Of a DNA stretch of 64,000 bases, positions 3,853 through 62,588 are shown in pieces (position 1 is the stretch's first letter; the number at the start of each line of letters is the position of its first letter). The stretch is from Serripes groenlandicus (taxonomy: Eukaryota; Mollusca; Bivalvia; Cardiida; Cardiidae), in contig JASEVX010000010.1 of assembly GCA_031761405.1 (NCBI GenBank), positions 7,779,977-7,843,976 on the forward strand, given 5' to 3'. The notes beneath the pieces were generated by a model. That model was not told where the DNA came from, searched no databases, and was given only the letters and a program-made list of their open reading frames with translations. A program made the position numbers and the translations under genes.

Positions 3853-4411
3853 GCCACCAATACAGATAATGATCAGAATACACATACGTTATCTGGATCT
3901 AAACTTGTTTCACATGTCCTATAAAACAGTTTAGTACACAGTCAGAAATTATTAATAAATATTATCAGGATACATGTAAATGCTTAAACCATTAACTCCA
4001 TGCTTCCTCACCTTCTATTTGTGTTTAGTTTAGGCAGATTGAAATTCCATTATTCATTAACTTTTCAAAATATATGATGTTTCTGAGTACCACACATTTT
4101 ATTGTACATGTTGTATACATGATATGAGCCTGTGCATGACAAAATGTACCAGTTGGCTTTTGAGAACAGTATTAAAGATTTAGATTAGACTGAGCATCTA
4201 TACAGTCTGATCAAGATGTACACTGTTCACATATTACTTACACTAGCTTGTTAGCATATTAATTCTGGTAGTGTCATACGGTATTAATTACAGTACTCTG
4301 ATAGAGCATAGGAGACTTTGTCACCCTGTAAACAGAACGATACATATTTTAAAAAAACAGCAGCCAAATTGAACCGACTGTTATATTGCTACTTATAGTA
4401 TGCTTTCCATT

Positions 4412-4626
4412 TTAATCCTTTCCTACTTGTAGACACATTCTGATGCATATGCAGCCGTCAACTTTTAAAAACAATGTGATAAATGGAGAAATTTTTACTT
4501 ATAATTCTCCTTTTGTCACAATGTTGTCAACTCTATTCAATTATCAAATTTTCATTTATAGAGATATTTGCCAAACCGTTTTCAAAGTCGTCCACTGCAT
4601 ATTTGCAACATGTGGGAAAGTGTTAA
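4412..4626. mobile_element. TTAA-flanked fold-back MITE (M1)
   Basis: 215 bp with TTAA at 4412-4415 and 4623-4626. The left arm 'aatcctttcctac' faces the right arm 'gtgggaaagtgtt', and the inner hairpin is 'aatggagaaattttta' against 'attctccttttgtcac'. A 62-codon open frame across it is a by-product of the fold-back. Confidence 0.6.
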
Positions 4627-4739
4627 GTTAACCATATTTTAACCCTTTCCCATACAGAGTAAACCTTTACTTAATGAATACATGTTTGACCTTCACTTAA
4701 TGAATACACGTTTGTCTTTGATTATAATTGCAAATCAAA

Positions 4740-4905
4740 TTGCACATCTGTGTTTACTCTGCAGCAGACGACTTTTGAAAAGCAATTTCTCCTTTTGTCA
4801 CAATGTTTTCAACTTTTTACAGTAATTATACTATCATTTCTAGAGATCTTCAAGATGTTTTCAGTCGTCTTCTGCATATTTGTTTTATGCTGGAATGTGT
4901 GAAGT
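4740..4905. mobile_element. Degenerate M1 MITE copy
   Basis: It contains 'ctgcagcagacgacttttga', 'ttctccttttgtcacaatg' and a right arm 'gctggaatgtgtgaag', but neither end keeps a clear TTAA. The short spacing to the 4412 copy suggests nested or successive insertion. Confidence 0.4.
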
Positions 4906-5489
4906 GAACAATCTAGATCTTGATCAGCATTATCTCTGCAGGCTGATATGGATCTAATTGACAATAGAAACTCAGAAATAATTTGACTTGAGAAATCAAA
5001 TAAACAGTTTTAAAACATTTAAATCTTTTATAGTAAATTGTTCAAAATAGAGCCTATATTGCCTAAATCGGGGACTACTAAAACTTATAATAAAGGAAAC
5101 ATTTGAACATTTTTAAAAATGATATACATCCCATAAAGATAAAAACATTTATTTCTAATGAGATCCTGTGTATCCGAATTTCAAATACATTTTCATCTAT
5201 CAGAAAACTATACTACTCGATAACAAATAATTTTCTTCCAAACAGAACAAAGCATCATAAAATGAAAGCATGGAATCAATTTATGACCTTATTTCAATAA
5301 GATAAATGAATTATTATCCCGATGGTCACAACATAGGAAATTTAGATATTACCTGATAGTCCATCGCGTCCGCCATTATTTGGTTTGTGCCTGACCCTTT
5401 ACATAGTAATAAGGGGAAGGAACTCCAGACTAATATGACAGTGACACAGAACGGGATCCAGACGTTTCGTAACATTTCATTTAAATAAA
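4906..5489. other. AT-rich sequence without a gene
   Basis: No coding or repeat signature up to about 5420. From there 'atgacagtgacacagaacgg' marks re-entry into the duplicated flank (21430 in unit 2). Confidence 0.5.
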
Positions 5490-8894: not shown

Positions 8895-10980
8895 TCCCGC
8901 AATCCTGAGAGCCAAGGAGGAAAGTCTTCACTATAATGTTTTCTCCCAATCCTAAGCACCAAGGAATACTACCAGTTTTGTCCGTAATCCTAAGCACCAA
9001 GGAGGAATGCCATTATTACAAGTTTTGTCCGTAATCCTAAGCACCAATGATGAATGCCATTATTACCAGTTTTGTCAGTAATCCTAAGCACCAATGAGGA
9101 ATGCCATTATTACCAGTTTTGTCCGTAATCCTAAGCACCAATGATGAATGCCATTATTACCAGTTTTGTCCGTAATCCTAAGCACCAATGATGAATGCCA
9201 TTATTACCAGTTTTGTCCGTAATCCTAAGCACCAATGAGGAATGCCATTATTACCAGTTTGGTCCGTAATCCTAAGCACCAATGAGGAATGCCATTATTA
9301 CCAGTTTTGTGCGTAATCCTAAGCACCAATGAGGAATGCCATTATTACCAGTTTTGTCCGTAATACTAAGCACCAAGGAGGAATGCCATTATTACCAGTT
9401 TTGTCCGTAATCCTAAGCACCAATGAGGAATGCCATTACTACCAGTTTTGTCCGTAATCCTAAGCACCAATGATGAATGCCATTATTACCAGTTTTGTCC
9501 GTAATCCTAAGCACCAAGGAGGAATGCCATTATTACCAGTTTTGTCCGTAATCCTAAGCACCAAGGAGGAATGCCATTATTACCAGTTTTGTCCGTAATC
9601 CTAAGCACCAAGGAGGAATGCCATTATTACCAGTTTTGTCCGTAATCCTAAACACCAATGAGGAATGCCATTATTACCAGTTTTGTCCGTAATCCTAAGC
9701 ACCAAGGAGGAATGCCATTATTACCAGTTTTGTCCGTAATCCTAAGCACCAAGGAGGAATGCCATTATTACCAGTTTTGTCCGTAATCCTAAGCACCAAT
9801 GATGAATGCCATTATTACCAGTTTTGTCCGTAATACTAAGCACCAATGATGAATGCCATTATTACCAGTTTTGTCCGTAATACTAAGCACCAAGGAGGAA
9901 TGCCATTATTACCAGTTTTGTCCGTAATCCTAAGCACCAAGGAGGAATGCCATTATTACCAGTTTTGTCCGTAATACTAAGCACCAAGGAGGAATGCCAT
10001 TATTACCAGTTTTGTCCGTAATCCTAAGCACCAAGGAGGAATGCCATTATTACCAGTTTTGTCCGTAATCCTAAGCACCAAGGAGGAATGCCATTATTAC
10101 CAGTTTTGTCCGTAATCCTAAGCACCAAGGAGGAATGCCATTATTACCAGTTTTGTCCGTAATCCTAAGCACCAATGATGAATGCCATTATTACCAGTTT
10201 TGTCCGTAATCCTAAGCACCAAGGAGGAATGCCATTATTACCAGTTTGGTCCGTAATCATAAGCACCAATGAGGAATGCCATTATTACCAGTTTTGTGCG
10301 TAATCCTAAGCACCAATGAGGAATGCCATTATTATCAGTTTTGTCCGTAATACTAAGCACCAAGGAGGAATGCCATTATTACCAGTTTTGTCCGTAATAC
10401 TAAGCACCAATGAGGAATGCCATTATTACCAGTTTTGTGCGTAATCCTAAGCACCAATGAGGAATGCCATTATTACCAGTTTTGTCCGTAATCCTAAGCA
10501 CCAATGAGGAATGCCATTATTACTAGTTTTGTTCGTAATCCTAAGCACCAAGGAGGAATGCCATTATTACCAGTTTTGTGCGTAATCCTAAGCACCAATG
10601 AGGAATGCCATTATTACCAGTTTTGTCCGTAATCCTAAGCACCAAGGAGGAATGCCATTATTACCAGTTTTGTCCGTAATCCTAAGCACCAAGGAAGAAT
10701 GCCATTATTACCAGTTTTGTCCGTAATCCTAAGCACCAAGGAGGAATGCCATTATTACCAGTTTTGTCCGTAATCCTAAGCACCAAGGAAGAATGCCATT
10801 ATTACCAGTTTTGTCCGTAATCCTAAGCACCAAGGAAGAATGCCATTATTACCAGTTTTGTCCGTAATCCTAAGCACCAAGGAGGAATACCATTACTACC
10901 AGTTTTGTCCGTAATCCTGAGCATCAAGGAGGAATGTCATTCCTACCAGTTGTGTCCGTAATCGTGAGTACCAAAGAGGA
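8895..10980. repeat. 47-bp minisatellite, homogeneous core (about 42 copies)
   Basis: The unit is 47 bp and contains 'gtaatcctaagcaccaa', then 'ggaggaatgccattat', then 'taccagttttgtcc'. Copies are nearly identical apart from a few two-state positions (caaggagg / caatgagg / caatgatg; cctaag / actaag), which are mixed along the array. There are no unique spacers. Homogeneity in the middle and decay at the right edge suggest recent amplification. Confidence 0.9.
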
Positions 10981-12345
10981 ATGACATTCCTACTATTTTA
11001 TTTCCGCAATCCTGAATGCCAAGGAGGAGTGTCATTAAAACCATTTTCCCTCCTCAATCCTAAGCACCAAGGAGGAATGCCATATCTACAATCTTTTCTC
11101 TGCAATCCTGTGCGCCAAAAAGGAATGCCATTTCTACTATTTTTTTTCGCGCAACCATATGCGCCAAGGTGGATATCCTTTACTTCCATTTAATCTCCAA
11201 TGAGGTAAGCCTAACCTGCCCTTTTATCACCGGTATCCTGAGCACCAGGGAGGAATGGCATTACTACCATGTCCCAAAGGGGAATGCCTTTACTACCATT
11301 TTGTTTTCCGCAATGCTGGGCACCAATGTGGCATGCGATTACTACCATTGCATCTCCTAAAACCTCAGCAGCAAGGATGAATTACACTACTAGCAATTTA
11401 TCTCCTCAACCCAGAGCGCCTAGGAGGAATACCATTTATATCATTTTTGTCCTGCAATCCTGAGCACCAAAGAGAAATGCCATTACTACCATTTTGTTCT
11501 TAATCCAATCACGAGCAATGACGGACGAGGAAAGCCATTCCTACCTTGTTATCTCCACAATCCTGAGGTACAAGGAGGCGTGCAATTACTACCATGTTTT
11601 CTCCTCAATCCTGATTGCCAAGGAGGAATGCTTTTACTAACATATTTTCCTCAATTCTGAGCTCAAGGAGGAATGCCATTACTACCATATTTTCTCCTTT
11701 GGCAAGAGCACGAAGGAGAAAAGCCTACTAGTACTATTTTCTTCCACAATCCTGAGCGCCAAGGAGAAATATCAACTAGTTCTATTTTTTCTATGAAATC
11801 CTGAGCGCCAATGAGGAATGCCATTACTAACATTTTTTCGCGGAATTCTAGAGCACAAATAATAAATACCAACTAGTTTTTTTGTTTTTTCGCAATCCTG
11901 AGCGCTAAGGCGAAAGGCAAACTAGTACTTTTTTGTTCTCTGTAATCCTGAACGTCAAGGAGGAATATCATTACTACCATTTTTTTTCCGAAATCCTGAG
12001 CGCAAAGGTGGAATACCATGACTACCAAGGATGAATGACTTTACTACCATTTTATCTCCGCAATCCTGAGCACCAAGGATGAATGACTTTACTACCATTT
12101 TTTTCTTTTCCGCAATCCTGTGTGCCAAGGAGGAATGCATTTTCTACCAATGTGTGTCCGCAATCCTGAGTACCAAGGAGGAATGCCGTTACTATTATTT
12201 TTTCTCCGAAATCCTGACCACCAAGTAAGAATGCCATTGCTACCATCTTTTCTCCACAATCCTTAGCACCAAGGAGTAATGACTTTACTACCATGTTATC
12301 TCCGCAATCCTGAGCACCATGGAGGAAAGCCTTTACTACCCTCTT
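10981..12345. repeat. 47-50 bp minisatellite, degenerate right flank
   Basis: Same unit type with many substitutions and small indels ('cgcaatcctgagcgccaagg', 'ggaatgccattactaccat', 'ttttttctcc'). Unit spacing drifts from 45 to 52 bp. The antisense frames read as repeated peptides but change from unit to unit, so they are not genes. Related arrays are at 23455-24510 and 61728-61862. Confidence 0.8.
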
Positions 12346-13230: not shown

Positions 13231-13516
13231 TATTTTTGTAGAGGGCCATCTAGGGACTTCTTTCGGTAGAGGGCCATATAAAGAATACATTTGGTAGAGG
13301 GCCATATAAGGAACACTTTTGGTAGAGGGTCATCTAAAGAATACTTTTGGTAGAGGGCCATCTAAAGAACACTTTCGGTAGAGGGCCAAATAAGGAACAC
13401 TTTTGGTAGAGGGCCATCTAAGGTACAATGTTGGTAGAGGGCCACCTAAAGAATACTTTTGGTAGAGGGCCATCTATGAAACACTTTTGGTAGAGGGCCA
13501 TATAAAGAAAGCTTTT
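13231..13516. repeat. 28-bp minisatellite (about 10 copies)
   Basis: The unit is 'ggtagagggccatctaagg' plus 'aacactttt', about 28 bp, with variants 'atataaaga' and 'acctaaaga'. The same unit recurs about five times at 62448-62588. Only one fragment survives at 25795 in unit 2. Confidence 0.85.
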
Positions 13517-14375
13517 GGAAAATTAATTTGAAGTTGGACAAGCCTTTTAGAAATCCTTTGAAGCAAAATTTTGACAGGCTGAGACACCTCTGTTGGGCAA
13601 CTATAAATATCCCACAATCCAAGAGGTTAACTATGAACACTAAACACTTTGCTAACACAATATGAACACATTTGTATATAGCACATATACTTTTGGTACT
13701 TTACACTTTAAATCTGGTAAACAAGAAAAAGAAAAGAAGTAAAAAAAGAAATAAAAGTTTGTTGGTACCTTTCCATTTAACCCATTACAGCAATGTGATG
13801 CAGATGATTTTTAAAGTATCGAAAATCTGAATAAATGAAAGTAAAATGATGGGGGGAAATGACAAAAATGCTTGTTATGAGCAATTTCTCAAATTGGCAC
13901 ATGGTTTTCAAGAATGGTCTACACAATTGGGATTTGTGGCAAATGTCTAACAGTAATTTATAAAGAGTGCCACTGAAATTAAAAAAATAACCCTTTCTTA
14001 CATGTAGATGCAATTGCAAAACACCATTTGAAAACAGAAGCAGACAGTTTAGGGAGCCACATTAGCCTGCACAGATGCGCTGGCTGATCTGGATCTACAC
14101 TGGTCACACAAGCCTTAAGGTTGCTTTTTTAAGAACACAGGTACTGGCAAATCTGCCGTAAGCTATCCTAGCAATCCTGAGTACCAAAGAGGGGACCTAA
14201 CCAGTACCTTAGACGATAACGAATCTTAGTATGACCGGATCCAATATCAGTAAAATCAGACAAAAATAGTTTAAAATATGTATATTGGATCTTACAACAT
14301 AAAATTAAATGTTTGCCTTCAATTGACCTTTACCTGATTTATATACAATCTGAACATTTCATTATCACCACTTCT
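13517..14375. other. Duplicated spacer with MITE remnants
   Basis: Matches 25816-26330 and 62586-63060; it begins 'aattaatttgaagttg'. 'tggcacatggttttcaagaa' and 'taaccctttcttacatg' (13988) are M1 remnants. One isolated 47-bp-like unit lies at 14168-14200. No gene. Confidence 0.5.
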
Positions 14376-23454: not shown

Positions 23455-24510
23455 GCAAAAGAGGGCAGCCATTATTACCATTAAAGTATTTGGTATGACC
23501 TGGACGAATGCCGTAGCTACCATTTTCTCTCCGCAATCCTGAGCGCCAAGAAGGAATGCCGTAACTACCATTTTTAAAGTATTTGGTATAACCTGGACGA
23601 ATACCGTAACTACCATTTTTCTCCTCAATCATGAGCGCCAAGGAGGAATGCCGTAAGTACCATTTTTCTCCTCAATCCTAAGCGCCAAGGACGAATGCCG
23701 TAAATACCACTTTTCTCCTCAATCCTGAGCGCCAAGAAGGAATGCCGTAACTACCATTTTTAAAGTATTTGGTATGACCTGGACGAATGCCGTAACTACC
23801 ATTATTAAAGTATTTGGTATGACCTGGACGAATGCCGTAACTACCATTATTAAAGTATTTGGTATGACCTGGACGAATACCGTAACTACCATTTTTCTCC
23901 TCAATCATGAGCGCCAAGGAGGAATGCCGTAAGTACCATTTTTCTCCTCAATCCTAAGCGCCAAGGACGAATGCCGTAAATACCACTTTTCTCCTCAATC
24001 CTGATCGCCAAGAAGGAATGCCGTAACTACCATTTTTAAAGTATTTGGTATGACCTGGACGAATGCCGTAACTACCATTATTAAAGTATTTGGTATGACC
24101 TGGACGAATGCCGTAACTACCATTTTTCTCCTCAATCATGAGCGCCAAGGAGGAATGCCGTAAGTACCATTTTTCTCCTCAATCCTAAGCGCCAAGGACG
24201 AATGCCGTAAATACCACTTTTCTCCTCAATCCTGAGCGCCAAGAAGGAATGCCGTAACTACCATTTTTAAAGTATTTGGTATGACCTGGACGAATGCCGT
24301 AACTACCATTATTAAAGTATTTGGTATGACCTGGACGAATGCCGTAACTACCACTTTTCTCCTCAATCATGAGCGCCAAGGAGGAATGCCGTAAGTACCA
24401 TTTTTCTCCTCAATCCTAAGCGCCAAGGACGAATGTCGTAAATACCACTTTTCTCCTCAATCCTGAGCGCCAAGGAGGAATGCCATTACTACCATCTTTA
24501 TAAATATTTG
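23455..24510. repeat. Higher-order minisatellite of 47-bp and 45-bp units
   Basis: Two unit types alternate. Type a (47 bp) has 'ctcctcaatcctgagcgcca' and resembles the 8895 array. Type b (45 bp) has 'aaagtatttggtatgacctg'. Both end in 'gaatgccgtaactaccatt'. Composite blocks of about 231 bp repeat, for example from 23954 and 24185; the block from 23678 has one extra b unit (276 bp). The near-identical antisense peptides come from this periodicity. Confidence 0.85.
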
Positions 24511-24939
24511 GCTTGACTTGATCGGGGATCCAACTCTGATCTTCAGCTACCTATCTAATCAGTACTCCATGGTGATTGTTAACTGGGGTTAGTATCGGGT
24601 TTTACGCCGCTTTCAACAGTTACGGTAACATTGCGGTTGACACTCAAGATGACATTGGTCTAACGCCTTATGAAACCTTCGAGGTAAAATATATAAGGTA
24701 AGAAATCAATACCACTTTACCTGCTTGAGCTCAAAAGTTGCATTGACACCAATCATTCCAATCATTTGCGGTTCAAGCAAGTGTCACAATGTGCCTGCCA
24801 TTCTTATTAAGTGTATCCTAAGGGCACTACTTGGGTAAGAAAAAGTCAGAAAAGGCCAATCTTTATGATTGAGGATAGCAGTCATATTCTTTTTATTGAA
24901 AATTGCATAACAAATCAAACAAGAGATGTTTGTCAAACA
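24511..24939. other. Duplicated spacer, unit 2
   Basis: Equivalent of 12346-12720 and 61863-62290. 'cgggttttacgccgctttca' (24597-24616) looks like a reverse SINE tail. No gene. Confidence 0.45.
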
Positions 24940-35100: not shown

Positions 35101-38100
35101 TATTTTACATGCAAGATAAATAGAATATTACGTCCCTGGCGTAAGATATGAACTTTATCAGACTCGGCTGTGAGAAAGGATAATTGTCTCGCCAAAGGCT
35201 CGCCAATTATCAATTCTCCCAACCTCGTCAGATAAAGTTCATATCTTACGTCAGGGACATAATATTCTCTATTTATATGCTGAATATATAGTATATATGG
35301 AGGATACACTTACAGGTGTGACGAATTGTTAAAGCGAAATTGTGGACATAGTTAACTTAAACCTATTCTCTATATGAATGGTTTAATCTAGTGTACTTTT
35401 AAAAGATTTCCTATCTTACTTCGTTACAATATGGAGAACGTTAAGGCTTTTGTACTAGGACACACAGGTAATCATTTATTTTTAATCGTTTAAATGTGTA
35501 AAGACATGGACGTTTAGTCCCTGGTAAAGATAAATAAAACATTTCTCTTTCATTTCAACTTAATTAATCTTATATATGGAGAATAACCATTTTTGATATG
35601 TCTTTATATTTCTTTTCGGGGATTTGCAGGTTATTCAATCTGATATTTCTTTGGTCACTTGTAATTTTATGTAACAGGGGTTCGCCCGGCATTTGTTAAA
35701 ATATAGTCCATGGAAATTTTCCATGTAACATCCTATTGGTTTATTAGGATCATGATGGTTGAAAATTTCTCCACTATTTTTCTTTTGCTACCTAACCAAA
35801 CCCTATGATGTGGGTATACAAAGAATCGTCTCAGTGTAACGATTATTTTGAGTACCCACAAAATAGTGTTTCAATATCAAGTAAATATTCTAGAATACTA
35901 GACAATTGCATGATCTAGAACTTTATGTCTGATATAAATTAAGCTTTTTCCTCGATAAACCACTGTTCAACAGGTTTGTAGATTTTAAAAAGATATAGTG
36001 TATCATATAGGTTTTGAAGGAAGGCTTTGTAGTCTGGAACCACGAACTGATCATTTTAACTTGCTTTTCAGCATCTTATGTATCAGTTAAAACAGTTGCT
36101 GCCGTAGGAGTTAGCGTCGGAGCAGTTTTGGCCGCTCCATTTGTTTTGCCAGCAATAGGTTTCGGGTCATTAGGCGTTGTAGCTGGTTCAGTGGCTGCCT
36201 CTATTCAGGTGATACTTTAAATAATATATATATATTTTTTTCATAACCCATGAAGCTTTCTGAAATGAAACCGGCAAAATCAAAGGAAGTCGTCATTTTG
36301 GTTATGTATAAAATGCGGTCGGTCGGTCGGACGTAAAACACAGATTGAAAAACATATTGTCGTCTAATCAATCATTTTTAATTCTAAATAGATATTTAAG
36401 GTAATAAAAGAACTGCGTAATTTCGTGTGAACTAACATTTTTAAGAAAAAGCGAAAAATGCGTGGAACTGAGAATGAAATAGTTTGTTCCCGTTTGTCAA
36501 AATAGCCGACTAGTACAGTACAAATCAAGGTGAGCTAGACGCACGCCATTTACCGTAAAGCGCTTTACAGACACCGACAACTGTATCCCGAATAATGATG
36601 ACTAGAGACGTATTTGGTGAAACAACTCCAATAGATCGTCTAAAGTGTTGGTAAGTAGGCCTTACATTCTATTGTAGAGATGTCGGCAGTCTTCGCGAAA
36701 ATCTTCAGTCCTGACTGACAATGAATTCTTCGAACTGACAAATATTCATACTGATTCTCATTTTAATCCATTCAACAATCCGATTATTTTTACAATAATT
36801 GGTTGATTGAACAAAAAGGCCAAAGATGAAAATGAGCTTTCAGACTGATATTTTTAAAAAGATACAGTGTAGCAAATCCGACTTGACATAGTTAACCAAA
36901 GTTGTGTCCCTTTGTTTAATTGGATCCATTTGTATAAACATAGGTCAACAAACAAAAAAGAAAACATTAATTCTGGTTAGTACTGTAGTGATTATGCAAA
37001 CCAGTCTGGCCAGTCACTCACTCTCGGTACTGTAGGCGCTTTGATTACGCGGGAACCAGTCAGCAATTTGCGGGTCCAACTGCCCATTCCAAACGCGACA
37101 GCCAAGGAGTACACACGCTTTCCGAAGCATAAACTAAAGTCTTAAGTATTACGCAAATAGATAGATAGGTAAGACACTTTACTGGTGTCAGAAGTGTTTT
37201 AATAACCCACAATTAAAAAGTGCATTTGAAGTGAACTATAAACATTACCGCAGAAACGCCGTAATAAGAACATTTATTGTGCACGTTGTTGGTGTTCTAC
37301 AAGTGAACGAAATTAAAGAATTGCAGTTTCAGAAGAAAGCAAAGTAAGTGTAAACCCCAAATACGCGTGGATTGATTGAATTGCAAAAACTTCCAGCCTT
37401 ATTTGACCATTTCAACTTGTTTGCTGTTCGGAGAAATTGAGTTGTTTTTGCACATGTTTTGCAACCGGAAGTTGACTTCCGTTTTGATTCTGTGTGGTAA
37501 AAACAGCTGAATAAGAAAAGTGAAGCTTGCCAAAGTCCTTCTAATTGTAATATACTGAGCATATATATTGTTTACAGGCATTTATTAGCTTTATAGCAGG
37601 ATTTAGGTTGGGAAAAAGTATTGTTGATTTTGAGAAAACTGAAAAATTCTGAGAACATTTTGGGAAAAAGAGCTTTGCATTTTTGGGCTATTTCAGTTGA
37701 GCCAAGTGCAACTTTTATTAGATTTTTCACAAATTTAGGTGAATAGCTAACTTTCCTTAAGTTTTCAGAAAGTTAAATTGAATTTTGAAAAAGTTTTCAG
37801 AGAATTTAAACAATATTTTGATTGTTTTCAAAAGTATTTGAATAATTTGAATAGTTTTCAGAGAATTAATTAACAGTTTTTAGATTAGACTGACTTTAAG
37901 CCCACACTTGAACTTGAAAATGTCGACAACCAATATAGCGGTGAACTTTGCAAGTCATGAAGACCTCCAGGGGATAATAGGCGTTGGACCTAAGATCGCT
38001 GATGCCATCATAATAAGTAGGTCAACGCAGGGAAATCTTACGCGGAAGACTTTGGAGAACCTGGTCAGACGGTCATTCACTAGCAGTGAATTGGCTTATC

Positions 38101-41100
38101 TGGACTTTACAGGAAATAGAGACCTCAACAAACCAGTCAAGCATTCAGCAAGTAAGACTAAATTTCAAGATGAAGCTAGGGATGAAATAACTCATTCAGG
38201 GGGAGCTGCTGGGCGTCAAGCCGGCCGTAGAACCCCTGCAAGTAAAGACAATGCATCCAAGATAGCCCAAATAAATAGCTTACTAAATACTGCAGAGGCC
38301 TTAACAAGTTCGATAACTAGATCTTCAGATAAGGGTATAGACAAAACAAAGTCGCATACAAAGACAGATAGAGTTATCGGAGGTTCATCCAAATCTCAAC
38401 CTCAAGAACACAGTGACCATGACAAAATAAAACGAAAGGACTCGATTTACAAAATCAGTCGGAAGCTGGATTTCGATGGGCTATCACGCAACACAGACTC
38501 AGATGACAGCTCAGACTCGGGTAGTGATGCGGTTTCTGCGAGCTTGCTCGAGACCCGTCATCACAAATCAAGACGGTCGACTCGTGGGAGATTTCCGTAC
38601 ATTCCAAAGGGAATGTATTACGATGGAAAAAGAAGTTGGATAGCCTTTAGAAAAATGTTTGAAGAATACGTGGATCTGTGTGATTTGAGGTCAAGAGAAA
38701 GCCGCACATGCTTAAGTTGGTGTTTAACGGGGAAAGCTGCCGACTACTACGAAACCCTTGTTGAGAGGGAGGACGATATGGGATACCATTTACTACTTAG
38801 TAAATTGGAGTCAAGGTTTGGGGGACGAGAGCCATTTGAAACCTCGAACGCCAAGTTTCAGAATGCTGCACAGCGTCAAGAAGAATCGTTAGAAGACTGG
38901 TATGATAGGGTATTAAGGCTGGCAACAAAGGCATTTAAAGAATGTTCACAAGTCTATGCTGATAGACAAGCCATTTGCAAATTTTGCCAGGGCCTTTTTG
39001 ACAAAGATGCGGGACACGCCATCTACATGCAGAACCCCTATACCATGGAAGAAGCAAGGGATGCCATCTTGAAGTTTCAACATGTTCACTCAAGCATGTT
39101 TGGAAAAAAGAAGCGAAACCCGAAAGATCAAGATGACATCTACGCCAATGCAGTTTCGTCAGAGCATAAACCTACAGCAAGCCAAGATCAACCAAATTCA
39201 GAGATATTGGCAAGTTTACAGAAAACTCTAGAAGGGATGAAACTCCAAATAGTCGACCTTCAAAGGACAGTGAAAGGTAATGCGAAACGAGACGGGTATG
39301 TCAAACCAAAGCAATCCGTTGACAAGGACCCATGCTTCAGATGTGGTAACATCGGACACTTCATACGAGACTGCCCAAACCCGAGTAGTAGTTGGCAAGG
39401 AAAGAAGAAGGGTTTAAACTCCAGGGGGTCAAGGAAATAAGCCAACCGAAGACCCCTAGAATTAAAGGCCCTACAACCCAAGAAACTCCTTGGCTGGAAA
39501 AGCATGACTTAAAGACTGTCGGTCCTGCGAGTCATGTGAAGAGTGATGACCTGCGTAAACCGAGGCTCGTCACGGAATGGGGAAGACCTTCATCAGAAAT
39601 CCCTATTGTACCCAAGACTGGTCCCAAACCGTCGTCCACCGAGAAGACAATAGGGGGGAAAGGAGACCATGAAGATGTAACAATATGTCAGCTCAACTCA
39701 TCCTCACCGTATAGAATTGAGATGAAAGTAGAGGATAAACTCATAACAGCAGTGGTCGATACTGGTGCGAATGTTACATTAATTTCCGATAAATTATACT
39801 CGACCCTGTCCAAACAACCCAAGAAAATTCAGGATGTAACACTTTCCGTGGCGGGAAGAGATATGTCAATGCAGGGTTTAATAGTCGGACCAGTACGATT
39901 GAGGATTGGTGACCAGACATACTACAACAATGTCCACGTGGCACCAATTGAACAAGACATGCTGTTAGGTGCAGATATCCTACAAGAAAACGCAACTCTG
40001 TTGGATTTGCGTAAGGGCATATTAATCTTCGATGGTCAAATCATACAGATGAAGGCACAGACTAGCGAACAAGGCCAGAAGATAGCCAGAATCACCGTTG
40101 CAAAGAGATGTGTAGTACCTCCCAATTCTGTGTTGAGAATGAAGTGCAAGATAGATGAAGATCTAGAACAGTATTGTATTGAGCCGATTGATGGGTTGAA
40201 GGTACTAATCCCAAGGGTGCTATTAGGAGAACGATCGGAGCCGATAGTTTCTGTGGTAAACATATCCAACAAATATCGTCTGCTGAAAAAAGGTCGAGAT
40301 ATAGCGAGAGCTTATCCAGTTCCTGAGGTTCTCGGGGGATGCCCCGTAAAATCACCAAGGATTAGAACCATGCATGCTGAGACTCAGAAAACCGGTCATA
40401 CTGAAATGCCAGAGCACTTGAAAGAGATGTTTAAGAAGTCTAGCTTAGGCCTGAATAAGGAAGAATCTGCTCAATTTTCGGACCTATTGATTCATTTTCA
40501 AGATGTATTTGCCAAACATGAATTCGATCTTGGAACATTCACGACAATTAAACACGAAGTTGATACGCAGGATGCTAGACCAATTAAACAAAGGATGCGG
40601 CGAACACCAGCACATTTTGTGGGGGAGGAGGAAGCACATCTAAAGAAGATGCTAGATGCGGGTGTCATACAAGAGTCTATATCTGATTGTGCATCGGCGC
40701 CTGTGCTCATTCGAAAACAAGATGGTAGTGTAAGATGGTGCATTGATTACCGAGGTTTGAACTCCGTAACAGTCAAAGACATCTTTCCATTGCCATTGGT
40801 AGATGACTGCTTGGATACGCTAGCAGGGAGTGTTTGGTTCTCAAAGCTGGATGCCAATTCCGCATACTGGCAAGTGAGCATTAAAGAAGAGGACAGAAAG
40901 AAAACCGCATTTATTACGAAATATGGATTATACGAACACGTAAAGATGGGTTTTGGTTTGTGTAACGCTCCCGCGACATTTGCAAGGGTGATGAATTTGG
41001 TCTTACGAGGGTTAACGTGGAAAATTGCCTTAGCCTTCCTAGATGACATACTGGTACTGGGAAAAGACTTTAATGATCACCTGAACAACTTGGCTGAAAC

Positions 41101-44100
41101 ATTGAGGAGATTCCGGCAGTATGGGCTCAAGTTGAAACCTAAGAAATGCATATTCTTCCAGAAGAAAGTAGAATTCCTTGTAAGAATGGTAAGCAGCAAC
41201 GAAATGGCCATGTCAGATCGAGATGTTAAAGTGGTAAAAGAATGGCCAAAACCGACCTGTTCCAAAGATGTAGAAAGATTCATGGGGTTGACTAACTATC
41301 ACAGAGGGTTTATCAAGGGTTTTTCCGAACTAGCTGAACCACTATACCGGGTGATAGGAAAGAATAAGTTCTGTTGGGGCGATGACCAGGAAAATTCCTT
41401 TGGTTCGTTGAAGAGGAGTTTATTGGAACCTCCAGTACTAGCCTTACCAAATCAGAAGGACCCATTTATCTTGGATACGGATGCGTCTGATGTAGCTATT
41501 GGAGCAGAACTGATCCAAGTGCAAAATGGTGAAGAAAAAGTCATTGCGTACGGAAGTTATGCGTTAACGAAAGAACAGCGACGTTACTGTACAACTAGAA
41601 AGGAGCTATTGGCTGTAGTTCGTTTCACTAGACAGTATCGACACTATTTGTTAGGCCAACCATTCTTAGTGAGAACAGATCATTCCAGTCTCACTTGGTT
41701 ACTGCGATTCAAAGAACCCCAAGGCCAGTTAGCAAGATGGATGGAGGAGTTGTCACAGTACAACATGGTCCTGAAACATCGAGCTGGTGCGAAACACGGG
41801 AATGCAGATGCTCTATCAAGGAGGCCGGCTCCTGGAGTTAAATGTAGTGCCTGTGAACGCGTAGAAGACTTGCCTTGTGGGGGATGTGACTATTGTAAAC
41901 GAGTAAACCGCCAATGGGGAAACTTCACGAGAGAGGTTGATGATGTCAGGCCGTTGGTATTGCCGATGTCTGACGAGACGGATGGCTTGAATGTAAATCC
42001 AGAACCTGATCACGCCACTGCTCTTCGTTTGGAAGTCTCATAGGGGTCAGAAAGGTTACAAGAAATCACCGGCAGGGAACAAACAATGACCAATGATTGT
42101 ACAGCACTAATGGTTGGTAGGGAGGAAGGAACAGGAGCGGAAATAACAGATTTGACAAATTTGGTATACCCATGGGAAATGGGTACATGTTGCTGCAACA
42201 ATGAGACCGCCTATCTAATTACTATTGAATGCCAAGATAAAGGGATGCATGTTCTGATGCCAAAGGATTCCGAACAATCAAATATCTTGAGGGTTAGTAC
42301 AGAAGTAAAACAGTCTCATTGGGGTTTCACGACAGAAGAAGTCGCTAGAGAACAGTCAGAAGATGATGATCTGGACATCATTCTGAAGTGGTTGAACAAT
42401 AAGGAACTACCATCAGAGAAGGAACTATTCCTTGCCAGTCCTGCAACAAAAGCATATTGGCTCAACAAGGAGATGTTTAAGATGATTGGTGGAGTATTAT
42501 TCAGGACCAAAGATCAGTTGGACGACACCGTGTTAGTTATGCCTAGCAGTCTGAAGGAGAAAGCTCTGTTGGTGAACCATGATTTACCATCAGCAGGGCA
42601 CCAGGGAATTGCACGGACAAAGGCTAGAACTAAGGACAAATTCTACTGGCACGGATTGGGACAGGACGTAATGAAGTACGTCACAACGTGTGACATCTGT
42701 AATCAAAACAAGAAGTCGGATCGTCGTGGTAAGAGGGCCATGCAGGAATATCAAGCGAGTGCACCAATGGAAAGGGTCCACATAGATTTCCTCGGACCGT
42801 TACCAAAAACACCGAGAGGACATGAACATGTGTTGATGATGGTGGACCAATTCTCAAAATGGGTTGAGTGTATTCCTCTACCAAATCAAACGGCTGAAGT
42901 TACCGCGAAGGCAACCGTAGACCAGTTCTTTGCAAGATTTGGGTACCCGTTGCAGATATTCAGCGACCAGGGGCGGAATTTTGATTCAAAATTGTTTGGG
43001 GCTTTATGTCAAACATTCCAGATACATAAAGCAAGAACCACACCTTACAGGCCTTCAGCGAATAGTCAAGTGGAGCGTTTTAACCGGACACTGATGGATG
43101 CCGTTAGATGCTTTATTGGTAAATCCCAAAACCAGTGGGATCTTTATTTACAGCAGATAGCGGGGGCATTAAGAGCTGCCGTCAATAGAAGTACCGGTTA
43201 TACCCCAAATATGTTGATGCTTGGGAGAGAAGTTAACACTCCAGCTGACCTAATGTTTCCACAACAAGAGAAACAACCTGAAGATACAGACAATTACGTG
43301 GTTAAGTTGATTTCAAACATGAAGGCTGCTCATAATACAGCAAGGGCAACTTTAAAGACATCCTTACAGCGTATGAAGAAGAGTTATGATGTGAGGATTC
43401 TGGAAAGAACATACAAAGAAGGCGACATAGTTTACATTCTAGATTCTGCAGTCCTCAAGGGGAAGTGCAGGAAGCTATGTTCACCTTGGAAAGGCCCTGC
43501 AGTTATTGTGAAGCCGCTATCAGCAAGTCTTTTTAGAATTAAATTAAGAAATTCCTTGTTTGTGGTCAACCATGACCGAATCAAACCCTGTAGAGATAGG
43601 CAAATACCGCCCTGGATACAAGCTTGGCTCAAAGACCCAAAACCACTGGATGATCATGATGAAGATAAAGAAGAATACTGTATGTGTAGACAGCCATGGC
43701 AGGGACGCTTCATGATCCAATGCGACTACTGCGAAGAATGGTACCATGGATCCTGTGTTGATGTGACAGCAACAGATGCTTTAGACATCGACAAGTTCAA
43801 GTGTGGGCCCTGCAAGAAGAAATAGAGGCAGTACCATACATAGGTTTTTCTTTCTTATCTTTTTCAGTATGACGACCAAATATCTTTCATTGAGAGAAGT
43901 ACAGATGTCCACAGAGGAGCAAAGACTAGTGCCTGCCAAAGGACTCGTTGAAGCTCTGATGTTAGGCAAGGTGACCCAGGCATGCCAGAACAAGGCCATG
44001 ATGGACCAAGTCGCCATAGCCAAACGACGTGACAACGTTAAGTGGATGAAGACAGTGGCGAAAGACGCATTTGATCTAGGTTTCCAAACCCTGGACTGGA

Positions 44101-47100
44101 TAAATGAGAATATCTACCATCTGAGGGTTCCCAGGAAATCGAAGAAAGACTGTTCGCCATTTTCAGGTCCCAGCCGGGATATTCGTCTTCAGACCAACCC
44201 AGACATAGAGCGAGTGGTATTGGACATGGGAGTGACGCCAGAGGAACCAGCTTCGGATGTTCCCGAGGAAAAAACAGATTTGACCACTAGTCCAAAGCCA
44301 CAGCCGAGTTGGGCTGACCAAGTCGCGGAGTACCAATTGACTCATCCTGAAGAACAACCCACTTTTGAGCCTTGCTATGACCTGTCCGATTCGGTCAGAG
44401 CAAGTGAAGAAGAAGATCTTCTGCGGAGCGATTTGGAGACGGTGGAAACGAACCAGACCCGAGATGAGGCCCAGCCCATGGAGATCGAGACGTCCTCACA
44501 GACTCTTGAGCTTTCCACTGAGGCGACTCCCACGGATCTGTTACCGGCAGTGGTGATGCCTACAATCAGGAAGTTCTCACCTGTCAAGTTTCCACCAAAG
44601 AAAGACGAATGTTGGAGGAAGCAGGAAGGCCGTCAAGAGAAAAGGAAGGATGAGAGACTTATCCCAAGATCGTCTGCCTGTACTAGAAAGGAGACCGATA
44701 CGAAGTCTACTCAACGTCACTCTGAGAGACGGCCAATTTCCCGAACGGATCAGACAAGACATCAGCCTCGGGAAGATAGAAAACGTCCTGCCTCCAGAAA
44801 TCCCAGCAAAGATTTGAACAGAAGCCCCGCGAAACGAGTAAAGCCTTCTGCGACTATGTCGATGACGGCCCAATCGTCTAGCGGGCGAAGATCATCCACG
44901 TTGCCACAGAGAACCCATTCTGTGCAGCCAGAGCGCCCAACTACAAGTGCTGGGCTGGGAGCACAGAAGAAGAGAGAGACCAAGACCTACAACCGGACAG
45001 TTGAGATGCACGGAGTGGAGCTGACCGTGAATAGCCGCTTCCCCGCTGCTAATTTGAAAGAGGGGAAGAGAGCGGATAGAAAAACAGACGGAAGGACGAA
45101 ACCTTGTATTGTTTCTGGGTGCACGGAGGAAGTGGTCCAACAGAAGATCCATGCCCTACGAGAGCACCTTCCGAGCCTGTTCGACGAAAGGACTCAACTG
45201 TCTGAAGAGGTAACCAGGAAGCGCCTGTCAGCATTGAAGTTAATAGCACACTGGATGCTAGGAGGATGTGCCACTGTTTCGCAGCTTGCCAAATACGTGG
45301 ACGCCTTCGAAGTGCTGACGATAGAGCAGAATAGGGAAGTTAATGAGGAGCAATCTTCAGCCATGACAGAGATCTGCAGGGAAGGAACGATGCCAATTCC
45401 GTAAAGGTTCACCCTGAGGCCCCTGTCTAGCCCAGCAGCCCTATTTCATTGGAGAGCTATGCTGTTCCTGATAGCCCAATTGGAGCCCCGTTACAGAGAG
45501 ATGTTACATGAGCAGTTCTCTACTGACAAGACCGCGCTGCCCCCGGCAAGTAAGAAGAAGGACGCAGAGATCAGCATAGCCAAGACGCTTCCTGAGGCAT
45601 TTGATAGCCATTTTCATTGGGATAGAACCCGGAACTGCTTAAAGAGCTTGAGGATAAGAGTTCCAAAGGACACCAAGTTACAGGATATTTGCGACGTAAC
45701 TCCCGCTGACCCCGCCTACGAAGTTAAGGTTGTCGGCGCCACCGCAAACTTCTGTGACCCGGAAACCTATCCCAAGGAGGACCAAATCAACATGCTAATT
45801 GGTCAGAATGTTAGCGTATGTGTGGGACTACATCCAAAGAAGGTACACCAATGGTCGGAAGATGTTCGAAACCAATTGGAAGAATTTAGCCAGCACCCGA
45901 GGGTAGTCGGAATAGGAGAGGTCGGTCTAGACTATACAGTCCCATCTGGAACATGGTTCAAACAAAGTTCAACCCTAGACAAGATACTCCAGATGGTGAA
46001 GCCCAGACATGTCTTGGTTATCCACTGCAGAGGGGCCAGTGGAGCCAATAGTGACCTACCTCTACATAACGTATTGAAGCAGGCCCAAGGAGTCCTACCT
46101 CCACAGCAGAACATCCATCTGCACTGCTTCTATGGTTCCGGCGAGCTGGTAAAGATCTGGTTAGAACACTTCCCCAACACCTACTTTGGATTCACCAGGA
46201 TAGTAGACCAAATGGGACGGCCTGAGCTGGAGGCACTCACACTGGTCCCGGAGGAACGACTACTACTGGAGACAGATGCCCCTTACTTCCCATTCAGAGG
46301 AGGGTCCCACACAGCTCCAAGTTTACTGGGAATGGTAGCAGACGTCGTGGCGAAAACAAGAGGTACCACCTGGACCCACTTACTGAAGGTGACGACCAAG
46401 AATGCCAGACGCCTGTATCAACGACCTGTTCAGGATCCGGTGTGATACCCGATCCTTGACAAACTTTGGAGGACCCGGCGCCATGCCCGGTCCGAAGCAG
46501 TTATGGGTTTGTATAAATAATATCATTCCGGGTAGACCCAGGAGGTTTGAAACAATAGGACTCACTGGTGCAGTACCGCCGACTAATCACTAAAGGGATT
46601 CCACAGTTAGGTCCTTTCAAATAAAGTCGGGGGGAGTGTAGTGATTATGCAAACCAGTCTGGCCAGTCACTCACTCTCGGTACTGTAGGCGCTTTGATTA
46701 CGCGGGAACCAGTCAGCAATTTGCGGGTCCTACTGCCCATTCCAAACGCGACAGCCAAGGAGTACACACGCTTTCCGAAGCATAAACTAAAGTCTTAAGT
46801 ATTACGCAAATAGATAGATAGGTAAGACACTTTAGTACTGGTTTAAATATCCTATAAACTAAAACCTTTAGATTTTTAAGATACATGCATATATGGTCAA
46901 TGCTCACACTGCATACCCAGCCTGTCGTTTATTTTGTTTATAATTTACCCTTTCCCACATACAATAAATCTGCAGCAGACGACTATGAAGTTATCAAGAC
47001 CAAAAGATAGAAAATCTCAAAATGATAGTATACATATTGAATAGAGTTTAAATCATTGTGATAAATGGAGAAATCGCTCTACATGAGCAAATTCTCCATT

Positions 47101-50100
47101 TGCCACTATGAGTTCAAGAGTTGTCTGTTTCAGAGGCGTCAGAAAGCGTCTGCATGATGGAAACCGTTAAAGCCTTAGTAAATTATGAAGGTGCATGCAC
47201 CAGACGCTTATTAAAACATAGTATAAGTACATTGTCAATGTCCGTGAAAGGCTGTAGTAATCTGGATTCCGCTAGCCAATTATTCAAAATAACTAAATTA
47301 GCTCTCGCACGAATCTACAGCAGTACATTAAGAAGCAAACAACAAATGAAAAGTATGTGTAGACAAAGACCATGGCTGTATTCATATTAACTTAACTAAC
47401 CGAACACTAGGTCAAGTGCTATTTAAAGCTATTATTAAACTGGTTGATCCAGTCAACAAGATCCTAGTGTAAATGCCGGTGTATTGCTATTACGATAGAG
47501 AGGGAGTCCCGTGTTATCGTCAAGCTTTTTTAGATCACATAGAGCCGAAGGCTCAAGGTGAGCTATTCTGATCACTTTTTGTCCGTCGTCCGTCGTCCGT
47601 CGTCCGTCCGTCCGTCCGTCCGTCCGTCCGTCCGGCGTTAACTTTTAGCTTTAAACATCATCTCCTCCCAAATTCCAAGGACAATTTCCGTGAAACATCA
47701 CAGGACTGTTCCTCTGGTTGGCCTCTTTCAAAGTTGTTCAAAGATTTAAATTCCATTGAGAACTTTGGTTGCTGCGGCATCAAAAAGGGGGCAAAATGTC
47801 CGAACTTTAAAAATCTTCTCCTCCGAATCTGCCTGTCAGATTCAAATATAATTTGGTAGAAATGTTCCTTGGGTGACCCTCTATAAAAATTGTTCAAGCC
47901 ATACTGATTGGTCAAAAAACATGGCAGTCAGGTGGCATCAGAAAAGGGGCAAAATGACAAAATGACAAAATTCCATTTTTATGAAAGTGCTTGTCTGATT
48001 TTAAGAAAATATAATACGAATCTTACTTAAATGATCCTCTATTTAATTTGTTTAAGCCATTTTGATGGGTAACACAATCATAGCAACCAGGCGTCATCAC
48101 AAAAGGGGTAAATTGAACTTTTAGCTACAAATGACAACCAACTCCTACCATTCCAATAGACCAATTTCCACAAAACATCACAGGAATGTTCCTTCGGTGG
48201 TCCTCTTTCAAATTTGTTCAAAGAATAAAATTCCATTGAGAACTTTGGTTGCTGCGGCATCAGAAAGGGGACAAAATGTCCAAACTTTAAAAATCTTTTC
48301 CTCCGAATCTACCTGTCAGATTCAAATATAATTTGGTAGAAATGTTCCTTGGGTGACCCTCTATGAAAATTGTTCAAGCCATACTGATTGGTCGAAAAAC
48401 ATGGCAGTCAGGCGGCATCAGAAAAGGGGCTAAATGACAAAATTTGAAAATTCCATTTTTATGAAAGTGTTTGTCTGATTTTAAGAAAATATAAAACGAA
48501 TTTTACTTTAATGATCCTCTATTTAATTTGTTAAAGCCGTTTTGATTGGTTACACAATCATAGCAACCAGGCGTCATCACAAAAGGGGTAAATTGAACTT
48601 TTAGCTACAAATGACAACCAACACCTGCCATTCCAATAGACCAATTACTACAAAACATCACAGGAATGATCCTTTTGTGGTCCTCTTTCAAAATTGTTCA
48701 AAGATTAAAATTCAAATGAGAACTTTGGTTGCTGCGGCATCAGAAAGGTGACAAAATGTCCAAACTTTAAAAATCTTCTGCTCCGAATCTGCCTGTCAGA
48801 TTCAAATATAATTTGGTAGAAATGTTCCTTGGGTGACCCTCTATAAAAATTGTTCAAGCCATACTGATTGGTCGAAAAACATGGCAGTCAGGCGGCATCA
48901 GAAAAGGGGCAAAATGACAAAATTTGAAAATTCCATTTTTATGAAAGTGTTTGTCTTATTTTAAGAAAATATAATACGAATCTTACTGTAATGATCCTCT
49001 ATTTAATTTGTTTAAGCCGTTTTGATTGGTTACGCAATCATATCAACCAGGTGTCATCACAAAAAGGGTAAATTGAACTTTTAGCTACAAGTGACATCCA
49101 ACTCCTACCATTCCAATAGACCAATTTCCACAAAACATCACAAGAATGTTCCTTTGGTGGTCCTCTTTCAAAATTGTTCAAAGATTTAAATTTCATTGAG
49201 AACTTTGGATGCTGCGGCATCAGAGAGTGAGAAAAAATACCCAAATTTTAAAATCCTTTTCCTCCATAATCTACTTGTGCGATTGCAAGATAATTTGGTA
49301 GAAATGTTTCTTAAGTGACCCTCTAAATAAACTGTTGAAGCCATATTGATTTGGTTGAAAAACAGCGCAGCAAGGCGGCATCAGGAAAGGTGCAAAATGA
49401 CAAAAACTTTATAATTCCATTCTTATTAAAGTTCTTGTTAGATTTCAAGATATAAATGGCCTTTACTGATAAGCTGTTTCTTGAGAAGTGTCCACTCCTT
49501 TCAGTGGAAGACAGTGGTGCAGAGGTAGAGCGTCGGCCTCTCGTATCAAAGGTCCCTGGTTCGAGTCCCGTGATGAGCGTGTCCTGACTTTGGGATTTTT
49601 CCACACAAACGGCGCGAGTACTGGTGAAGTCTCCAGGAAGCAGACATCGAGCGTGATTAATCTAAGCCCAAGGCTTGTTTCGCAATCGATGTAAAATAAA
49701 TAAGTTTAAACTAAACTCCTTTCAGTTTCATTTGCACTCCCTGATAAAATTTTCCAGATATTTGCAGTTAAATATTTGCTACTAATTTACTATCAATTAG
49801 GTGATCGATTTAGGGCCATCTTGGCCCTCTTGTTTAAATTGTCGATTAGTAATATATCTATTTACATTTGAAACTTATTTTCAACAATTGAATATAGAAG
49901 GGTAAATCAACAATTTCTCTCATTCTACATGTTCATTTCACATGATTTCTGTATCAAAATCCATCAAGTGGCTTGTGAATTGTTCCCGACTTCACATGTT
50001 ATCACATGAGTGTGGTATTTCAATGGTTAGATATTAATATAGTTCTGATTATATAAGATATGATTCGAAATTGTATAATCATACAAGAAACTTGTTATAC

Positions 50101-56229: not shown

Positions 56230-57454
56230 TAGTCTGGCAGCCAAATGGGATTTAAGGGGTATACCTGGACGTGGAGTATATACAATGTTTTTGGGTTGAA
56301 ATGGGTCACTGAGACCATACATAATAAGAATCCGCTTGATGACACCTTGTCACCTTTGGGCATATCTTCTAATTTGCATAAAACCAAGATGGCCGCCATT
56401 GTTCTATTGAATATACTACAATTAAGATATCTCGGCTTCGAGAAGGGATTTTAAACCAATCTAAAATGTTTTAACAGCTTTAAGACATTAGGAACCCAAT
56501 GGAATAACTTTTATTATGATTTGAAAAATCTTTCATTTGCATAAATCCAAGATGGCCGCCGTTAAACCTCTCAGGAGACGGGTTTGATGTCACCACATTC
56601 TGGATACATTTTAAATGATTTGTTTAAATGTTTAGATAAAATAGAGGTTCCATATAAAACATCTTATCTTACAATTCAAATATATGTGCTTCATTTGCAT
56701 ATTCCAATATGGCCGTTGTCAATCTGTTAATCTGTTAACAGTTTGCTGTACTTTTGATGACATGCTTGATTGATCTAAATAGTGACAATATCATTGAACA
56801 CCTGCAACATAATATTAGTAGTTTGTCATTGACATATACATTGTAATATATTTAAGCTTACAGACACCAGGTCATAAAGTAAACTAATTCCAGATATCCA
56901 TTAAATAGAATAAAATGACTGAAAAGTCATAATGTTCTAGTACTGTCTATGCTGGGCAAGCCATGGCGCATACATAAATCGTTCAAATTTCTTCTCCTTT
57001 ATTTACTGAGATAGTAGAGTTTATAGTACATGATATTGTACACAGTTATCAACATGATGTATATCTCATTTGTCCGTGTTGGCATTAATACCTTATGTCA
57101 AAAAGACATCGTCGTCATCTGCACGTCAGTTCGTTATGACAGTCCTCAGCATGACATCCTCAAAATACAGTGCACAGTAGTTTACCTCTCACACTACCAC
57201 ATCTTCCTAATTTGCAAGGTCTTCCCCTTTACAAGAGCAGAGAAATCGGTTTCAGACCTCTTGTGGAGCAAGGGACACATCTTCATATATCGATTTAGGC
57301 ATCATAGTATTGGAACTGTCGTCATGAACGTATCAATATTCTGTTGGATCTATTAAGGGAGGGTCTAGATCCAAAGCGTGTTTCCACACAGCTGCCTGCA
57401 TGTGTGCCCATTAGAAATTTGCCAGAAATGCTTCTATTGTGGGAGGTAGAGATT

Positions 57455-59540: not shown

Positions 59541-59913
59541 CGCAACCCCCCGAAAATGCTTCTTTCGAGACCTCTGCGAGAGGTTTGACGGTGGCCATCT
59601 TGGATTAAGGAAAATTAAGGAGTTGTCAAATCATAATAAAAGTAATTCCATTGGGTTCCTAATATCTTAAAGCCACGTTAAAACATGTTAGATTGTTTTT
59701 AAAATCCCTTCTCGAAGCCGAGATATTTTAATTGTAGTATATTCAGTAGAACAATGGTGGCCATCTTGGTTTTATGCAAATTAGAAGAAATGCCCTAAGG
59801 TGACAGGGTGTCATCAAGCGGATTCTTATTATGTATGGTCTCAGTGATCCATTTCAACCCAAAAACATTGTATATACTCCACTTCCAGGTTAAGCTAGTT
59901 GGCTGCTGGACTA

Positions 59914-62447: not shown

Positions 62448-62588
62448 TGGAGGGCCACCTAAATAATACTTTTGGTAGAGGATCATTTAAGGAATACTTT
62501 TGGTAGAGGGCCACCTAAGGAATACTTTTGGTAATGGGCCATCTAAGGAACACTTTTGGTAGAGGGCCACCTAAGGAATACTTTTGTG
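62448..62588. repeat. 28-bp minisatellite, about 5 copies
   Basis: 'ggtagagggccacctaagga' plus 'atactttt' units, matching 13231-13516. Confidence 0.8.

What the first reader, a model, noticed from the sequence alone, without database searches (positions are those of the whole stretch)
36984..46834. Very young Ty3-type retrotransposon with an enlarged gene set (Gag-HhH, Pol, PHD-integrase, finger ORF, TatD)
The element is complete, has LTRs differing at one base of 198, a clear target duplication, a tRNA-Leu primer site and a purine tract. It also carries two long ORFs in the env position that are not envelope genes. The combination of an HhH Gag, a PHD-tipped integrase and a linked TatD nuclease is not one I know as a described element type.
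Basis: partly seen in the sequence, partly recalled or inferred. Interest (0 to 1): 0.88.

Follow-up and report, generated by a model that had tools for sequence, protein, structure and literature searches.

The report
Jumping gene carrying a nuclease gene
A recently inserted copy of a jumping gene (a Ty3-type retrotransposon) belongs to a group whose integrase ends in a chromatin-reading finger and which carries, where viruses keep their envelope gene, a gene for a nucleic-acid-cutting enzyme instead; related families in the same genome share the trait, so it is an established part of the element and not a one-off capture.

Summary
The element is real at 36984-46834: 198-bp LTRs with one difference, GTAC target duplication, primer site, purine tract, -1 frameshift site. 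The five ORFs are three genes: Pol is cut by one in-frame stop (42041), and "finger" and "TatD" are one gene cut by another (45402). In 12 of 12 sister copies examined the second position is sense; five integrase rows lie in uncut Pol frames. This copy is young but damaged.

The extra gene is no private capture. Of 40 hand-picked integrase loci in the host genome, 18 have the PHD finger and all 18 have TatD; 22 have neither. Thirteen are the window's family, five come from three others (integrase 60-73% identical). A strong splice-acceptor-like site precedes its ATG and a donor-like site ends the LTR, both mostly conserved, so it is probably made from a spliced mRNA, as env genes are. The PHD resembles H3K4me3 readers and keeps the cage residues, predicting promoter-directed integration. 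TatD keeps its metal ligands and is under purifying selection (dN/dS 0.23). Its substrate is unknown. No such element turned up in ten paper searches; Repbase was out of reach. New variant of a known kind.

The parts
36980..36983 (.). target site duplication GTAC (second copy 46835-46838)
36984..37181 (+). 5' LTR, 198 bp
37166..37174 (+). predicted splice donor TAG|GTAAGA near the LTR end
   Evidence: rank 14 of 63991 positions; motif GGTRAG..CACTTTA in 16 of 18 PHD loci and 0 of 22 others
37183..37196 (+). primer binding site TGGTGTCAGAAGTG (tRNA-Leu type, recalled)
37920..39440 (+). gag (open frame from 37884): N-terminal helix-hairpin-helix, gag/PNMA-like region, CCHC knuckle
   Evidence: HhH also in Gag of two distant families
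39410..39419 (+). GGGTTTAAAC, two overlapping -1 frameshift heptamers in gag phase inside the gag-pol overlap (39392-39440), hairpin downstream
39392..42043 (+). pol, first part: aspartic protease, reverse transcriptase, RNase H; ends at an in-frame stop (42041-42043)
42044..43825 (+). pol, second part, same frame: H2C2, integrase core, C-terminal PHD finger (PHD about 43679-43813)
43845..43867 (+). predicted splice acceptor (pyrimidine tract and CAG) directly before the ATG of the third gene
   Evidence: rank 4 on the window's plus strand
43869..45404 (+). third gene, first part: helical N-domain, disordered region, C2H2-like finger (about 45120-45173) and start of a helical module; ends at an in-frame stop (45402-45404)
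   Evidence: domain layout from the model of relative P0122
45405..46445 (+). third gene, second part, same frame: rest of the helical module and TatD nuclease domain (about 45600-46421)
46629..46636 (+). polypurine tract GGGGGGAG
46637..46834 (+). 3' LTR, 198 bp
46835..46838 (.). target site duplication GTAC

Best explanation
A recent but damaged copy of a Ty3/Gypsy LTR retrotransposon from a lineage with three genes: gag (HhH), pol (PR-RT-RH-IN-PHD, reached by -1 frameshift) and a third gene in the env position that encodes one protein of about 860 residues: helical N-domain, disordered region, C2H2-like finger, helical module, TatD nuclease. Shown by sequence: gene order, the two stops of this copy, co-occurrence of PHD and TatD in four families of one genome, purifying selection, kept metal ligands, splice-like signals that recur across families. 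Inferred: the third gene is expressed from an mRNA spliced from the LTR end to the site before its ATG (about 80% likely); the PHD binds H3K4me3 and steers integration to active promoters (about 65%); TatD acts as a metal-dependent 3' exonuclease on the element's own nucleic acids, most likely trimming or clearing ssDNA, RNA or RNA:DNA intermediates of reverse transcription and integration (about 40%), with counter-defence against host nucleic-acid surveillance the main alternative (about 30%).
For: LTRs, TSD, PBS, PPT. RT nearest in PDB to Ty3 RT, E 3e-80. PHD signature in 65 of the 120 listed Pol relatives (of 3893 below the E limit), with M at the cage position in 65 of 65 and Y or F in 64 of 65; best PDB matches of the PHD are PHF2, PHF8, KDM7A (JHDM1D), CFP1, DIDO1, BPTF and fly PPS, E down to 1e-13. 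Own genome: 18 of 40 loci with PHD and TatD, 22 with neither, none discordant. Finger and TatD in one frame in relative P0122 and in L100, L102, L114; stop position sense in 12 of 12 sister copies, 9 of 12 open for 841-858 codons. dN/dS: TatD 0.23, IN 0.24, ORF4 N-part 0.33, ORF4 C-part 0.09. TatD ligands HxH, E, H, H, D in the window and three further elements. Splice-like signals. HhH in Gag of two distant families.
Against: No RNA data: splicing is predicted with scoring matrices written from recall. In one of five distant loci (L114) no top-5 acceptor lies before the third gene, and the LTR-end donor motif is missing from L105 and L126. 13 of the 18 PHD+TatD loci are one family, and the 40 were hand-picked from 150 scored of 2186 candidates. 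Linkage was seen in one genome only. 55 of 120 Pol relatives lack the PHD signature; by their printed tails most end before or within the integrase, P0178 has a degenerate PHD, and P0169 and P0181 stop just before or in it, as after a frameshift. L126 has no detectable N-domain and its third gene is broken. Neither PHD binding nor nuclease activity was measured.
Confidence: 0.82

Rival explanations
1. Private capture: finger and TatD were picked up by this one copy or family from a host TATDN2-like gene.
For: TatD is also a host gene family, and LTR elements do capture genes (PMC5408684, PMC6431247, passages read).
Against: TatD sits after the PHD in 18 of 18 PHD loci of four families with integrase identity 60-99%; TatD identity of the distant families to the window is 33-44% where measured with the window's own TatD, as expected of long co-residence.
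Confidence: 0.03
2. The TAG and TAA are programmed: Pol and the third gene are each made by stop-codon readthrough as a regulatory device.
For: Both stops are single and in frame. Another copy has a 1477-codon Pol frame with one TAG, but inside the integrase match, a different place.
Against: The position is sense in 12 of 12 sisters for the third gene; Pol is one open frame in many relatives, and five rows lie in frames of 1477 codons with no stop.
Confidence: 0.03
3. Counter-defence: Fin-TatD is not part of cDNA processing but degrades host guide or sensor nucleic acids, such as small RNAs or R-loops, that would silence the element.
For: TatD is in a gene of its own and not in Pol, and has a long low-confidence (disordered) region, which suits accessory proteins; sources name some relatives 3'-5' RNA nuclease TATDN2-like. 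DEDDy nucleases occupy the same place in rotifer elements (PMC5408684, passages).
Against: No substrate known; selection on TatD is as strong as on integrase, which fits a core function equally well.
Confidence: 0.3
4. Envelope replacement: the third gene works in cell-to-cell passage.
For: Position and predicted splicing are those of env genes.
Against: Encodes a C2H2-like finger and TatD; no envelope family in Pfam up to E 1 for the window or 0.1 for relatives. Transmembrane or signal sequences were not tested.
Confidence: 0.04

Closest known systems
Bdelloid rotifer LTR retrotransposons Vesta and Juno with enzymatic ORF3 (Rodriguez, Kenefick and Arkhipova 2017, PMC5408684; abstract and passages seen)
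   Same: LTR elements with a nuclease (DEDDy exonuclease) or esterase gene in the env position; the paper says that ORF3s in LTR elements are typically expressed from spliced messages
   Different: Different nuclease family (TatD here), PHD on the integrase, HhH in Gag, no dUTPase found; host not a rotifer by its nearest named relatives
Ginger1 DNA transposons (PMC2836005; passages seen)
   Same: Gypsy-like integrase with extra C-terminal domains; one family, Ginger1-9_HM of Hydra, lists a PHD together with Ulp1
   Different: DNA transposon with terminal inverted repeats, no Gag, RT or TatD; PHD in one listed family only
Chromoviruses (Ty3/Gypsy with integrase chromodomain; named in PMC12440569, abstract and one passage seen)
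   Same: Chromatin-reading domain at the C-terminus of Pol
   Different: PHD of the H3K4me3-reader type instead of a chromodomain; would aim at active rather than silent chromatin (recalled)
Mollusc Gypsy clades of PMC6238403 (passages seen), Mag lineage and MolGy clades
   Same: Perhaps one of these clades; the tRNA-Leu-like primer site recalls Mag-lineage SURL (recalled)
   Different: Main text has no occurrence of PHD or TatD; clade membership was not tested
TATDN2-like TatD nucleases of invertebrate gene sets
   Same: Same protein family and, in part, the same finger-module-TatD layout
   Different: Annotated as host genes; how many are pieces of such elements was not tested

Membership tests
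Ty3/Gypsy (Metaviridae) LTR retrotransposon | LTRs with 4-6 bp target duplication, PBS and PPT | tested here: met
Ty3/Gypsy (Metaviridae) LTR retrotransposon | order PR-RT-RH-IN | tested here: met
Ty3/Gypsy (Metaviridae) LTR retrotransposon | RT closest to Ty3/Gypsy RTs | tested here: met
   PDB: Ty3 RT E 3e-80 and Ty3 Gag-Pol 9e-80, next an 'Enzymatic polyprotein' 7e-48; no tree with named clades was built
Chromovirus | chromodomain at the C-terminus of integrase | tested here: not met
   Pfam lists PHD and no chromodomain up to E 1
Env-bearing errantivirus-like element | envelope glycoprotein gene after pol | tested here: not met
   no envelope family in ORF4 or ORF5 up to E 1
Bdelloid Vesta/Juno type | dUTPase between PR and RT | tested here: not met
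   no dUTPase in the Pfam scan up to E 1
Ginger1 DNA transposon | terminal inverted repeats and no RT | tested here: not met
   direct LTRs and RT
TatD nuclease family | TatD domain with HxH, E, H, H, D metal ligands (ligand list recalled) | tested here: met
TatD nuclease family | nuclease activity | not testable with these tools
   needs protein
H3K4me3-reading PHD finger | aromatic/hydrophobic cage residues | tested here: met
   window PHD has Y, M, W; relatives; cage assignment recalled
H3K4me3-reading PHD finger | binds H3K4me3 | not testable with these tools
   needs protein

The most novel reading that the evidence does not exclude
A lineage of Ty3/Gypsy elements, perhaps spread over several animal phyla, aims its integrase at H3K4me3 promoters with a PHD finger and brings its own spliced finger-TatD nuclease, which it needs for cDNA maturation or to escape silencing; copies and remnants of this gene make up much of what is annotated as TATDN2-like in invertebrate genomes, some of it perhaps taken over by the hosts.
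Probability: 0.35. Interest if true: 0.82.

Novelty: new variant of a known kind. Interest (0 to 1): 0.63.

Why it matters
It joins two rare traits, a reader-like finger for an active-chromatin mark on the integrase and a dedicated nuclease gene in the env position, in one lineage where both are conserved. That gives a testable case of promoter-directed integration in animals opposite in aim to chromoviruses, and a second nuclease type (after the DEDDy nucleases of rotifers) in the same position, which suggests that LTR elements repeatedly need or profit from an exonuclease. It also warns that some invertebrate 'TATDN2' gene models may be transposon genes.
Full report
What is there. The window holds a complete LTR retrotransposon at 36984-46834: two 198-bp LTRs that differ at one base, a GTAC target duplication, a primer-site-like sequence after the 5' LTR, and a purine tract directly before the 3' LTR. 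Gag and Pol overlap by 49 nt, and in the overlap lies GGGTTTAAAC, two overlapping -1 slippery heptamers in the gag phase, with a predicted hairpin just downstream (-13.4 kcal/mol, no shuffled control). The RT is nearest among solved structures to that of Ty3.

Three genes, not five. ORFs 2 and 3 are in one frame with a single TAG between them, and ORFs 4 and 5 in one frame with a single TAA between them. In many database relatives Pol is one protein from protease to PHD, and in the host genome five integrase rows lie in open frames of 1477 codons, the exact sum of the two window pieces plus one codon. For the third gene, 12 of 12 sister copies examined have a sense codon at the stop position, and 9 of 12 are open for 841-858 codons from the ATG; the other three have earlier stops, at 58, 315 and 354 codons. 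The relative P0122 (872 aa) has the same layout as a single protein. So this copy is young by its LTRs but carries two lesions of its own. With about 0.25% change per site since insertion, a 9.85-kb element would be expected to have about two dozen changes, so one or two nonsense changes are unremarkable; sequencing error is not excluded.

Linkage. From 150 scored integrase rows (of 2186 candidates) I read 40 stretches of 5.1 kb reaching from the integrase core downstream. Eighteen have a PHD finger and all eighteen have TatD after it; twenty-two have neither; none was discordant, at tblastn E 1e-4 with panels of at most 7 PHD and 12 TatD queries (Fisher p 9e-12 by locus, 0.008 if counted as four families against five others; five is my guess for the others). 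The N-domain of ORF4 was found in 17 of the 18, not in L126. Thirteen of the eighteen belong to the window's family (integrase 96-99% identical), the rest to three more: L100 and L105 (69-70%), L102 and L114 (71-73%), L126 (60%). The stretches were chosen by hand, the first twenty with a lean to the window's family. In L100, L102 and L114 the third gene is one open frame of 668-977 codons, leader included; in L105 and L126 it is broken. The Gags of the L100 and L102 families also begin with HhH (HHH_3 E 1e-04, below the cut-off, and 7e-07, above it). L129/L100 and L130/L102 have LTR pairs that are 100% identical (218 and about 300 bp) with 4-bp duplications by eye (GTAT, CAAG).

Expression. 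Directly before the ATG of the third gene stands a pyrimidine tract and CAG that ranks fourth on the window's plus strand in a simple acceptor matrix; near the end of the LTR stands TAG|GTAAGA, fourteenth for donors. From the tract to the ATG the 12 sisters agree with the window but for one T. In the distant loci the best or second-best acceptor of the stretch lies at the same place in L100, L102, L105 and L126, but is not in the top five in L114. The donor followed by CACTTTA at the LTR end is present in 16 of the 18 PHD loci (the 13 of the window's family, L100, L102, L114; not L105 or L126) and in 0 of the 22 others. I infer an env-like spliced mRNA. The matrices were written from recall; no RNA was seen.

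PHD. Sixty-five of the 120 listed Pol relatives (of 3893 below the E limit) show the PHD signature; by their printed tails most of the rest end before or within the integrase. The residue before the first Cys is Y in 54, F in 10, H in 1, and the residue three before the third Cys is M in 65 of 65. The closest solved PHD fingers are PHF2, PHF8, PPS, CFP1, KDM7A, DIDO1 and BPTF, most of them known to me as H3K4me3 readers (recalled). I therefore predict integration near active promoters.

TatD. The domain has HxH, E172, H207, H240 and D291 (residues of ORF5), and these are kept in L100, L102 and L114 (that these are the metal ligands is recalled). Within the window's family, mean dN/dS is 0.23 for TatD and 0.24 for integrase, 0.09 for the C-terminal and 0.33 for the N-terminal part of ORF4 (11, 11, 8 and 8 distinct sequences). 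A model of P0122 gives a confident TatD domain and a confident all-helical finger module, and Foldseek finds TatD structures for the nuclease part. 231 proteins were found for ORF5, 120 listed; the named ones come from bivalves, gastropods, a sea star, ticks and a coral, besides bacterial MAGs. A motif census of 122 proteins found 17 with both a finger-like pattern and the HW motif upstream of TatD; 52 had no HxH motif under my pattern, for reasons not checked. The coral forms with CCHC knuckles are a separate branch on the bacterial side.

What it is like and what is new. Enzyme genes in the env position are known from bdelloid rotifers, where a DEDDy nuclease or an esterase is found (PMC5408684, abstract and passages); a PHD behind a Gypsy-like integrase is listed for one Ginger1 DNA transposon (PMC2836005, passages); chromatin readers on integrase are known from chromoviruses. 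The TatD nuclease and the PHD integrase in one conserved LTR lineage were not found in my ten searches of the paper library (listings, with passages seen in eight papers: PMC6962438, PMC12440569, PMC5408684, PMC6431247, PMC6238403, PMC8556966, PMC2836005, PMC4255032). Repbase and subscription journals were out of reach. I rate it a new variant of a known kind; on rechecking I lowered interest by 0.01 for the Ginger1 precedent and the odds of splicing from 85 to 80% for the loci that lack a signal.

Function, with odds. I take cDNA processing by TatD as the most likely role (about 40%), counter-defence next (about 30%), and leave the rest open. None of this was measured.

Noticed in passing
window 8970-11132 and 23502-24511: Large tandem arrays: a 47-bp unit (46 copies at 94%), and a 47-bp-type array with 231-276-bp higher order.
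   Followed up: no
window 47682-49450: 480-bp tandem unit, 3.7 copies at 90%, about 850 bp after the element.
   Followed up: no
window 13233-13518 and 62450-62586: A similar 28-bp tandem unit occurs in two arrays 49 kb apart.
   Followed up: no
window 56263-56572 and 59578-59890: Inverted repeat arms (193 bp at 96%, and 96 bp at 89%) about 3 kb apart, as in a DNA transposon with long terminal inverted repeats.
   Followed up: no
P0008, P0014, P0017, P0020, P0023, P0134, P0170, P0196: Proteins of this type filed under bacterial MAGs (Sedimenticola, Candidatus Thiodiazotropha): probably host DNA in symbiont assemblies.
   Followed up: no
P0113, P0119, P0120: Proteins with CCHC knuckles and a TatD domain (one named Montipora), a different TatD branch; possibly another mobile element or a domesticated gene.
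   Followed up: partly
P0097: A Pecten maximus 'TATDN2' model joins a TatD fragment to an RT fragment that looks LINE-type by eye, an example of likely misannotation.
   Followed up: no
L100, positions 4173-5097, and L129, 812-1262: Diverged copies of one repeat lie on both sides of this element copy, so it seems to sit inside a repeat array.
   Followed up: no
P0204: A Pol relative with a predicted RNA 2'-phosphotransferase domain (PF01885) in the same protein, perhaps another gene caught by or fused with such an element.
   Followed up: no
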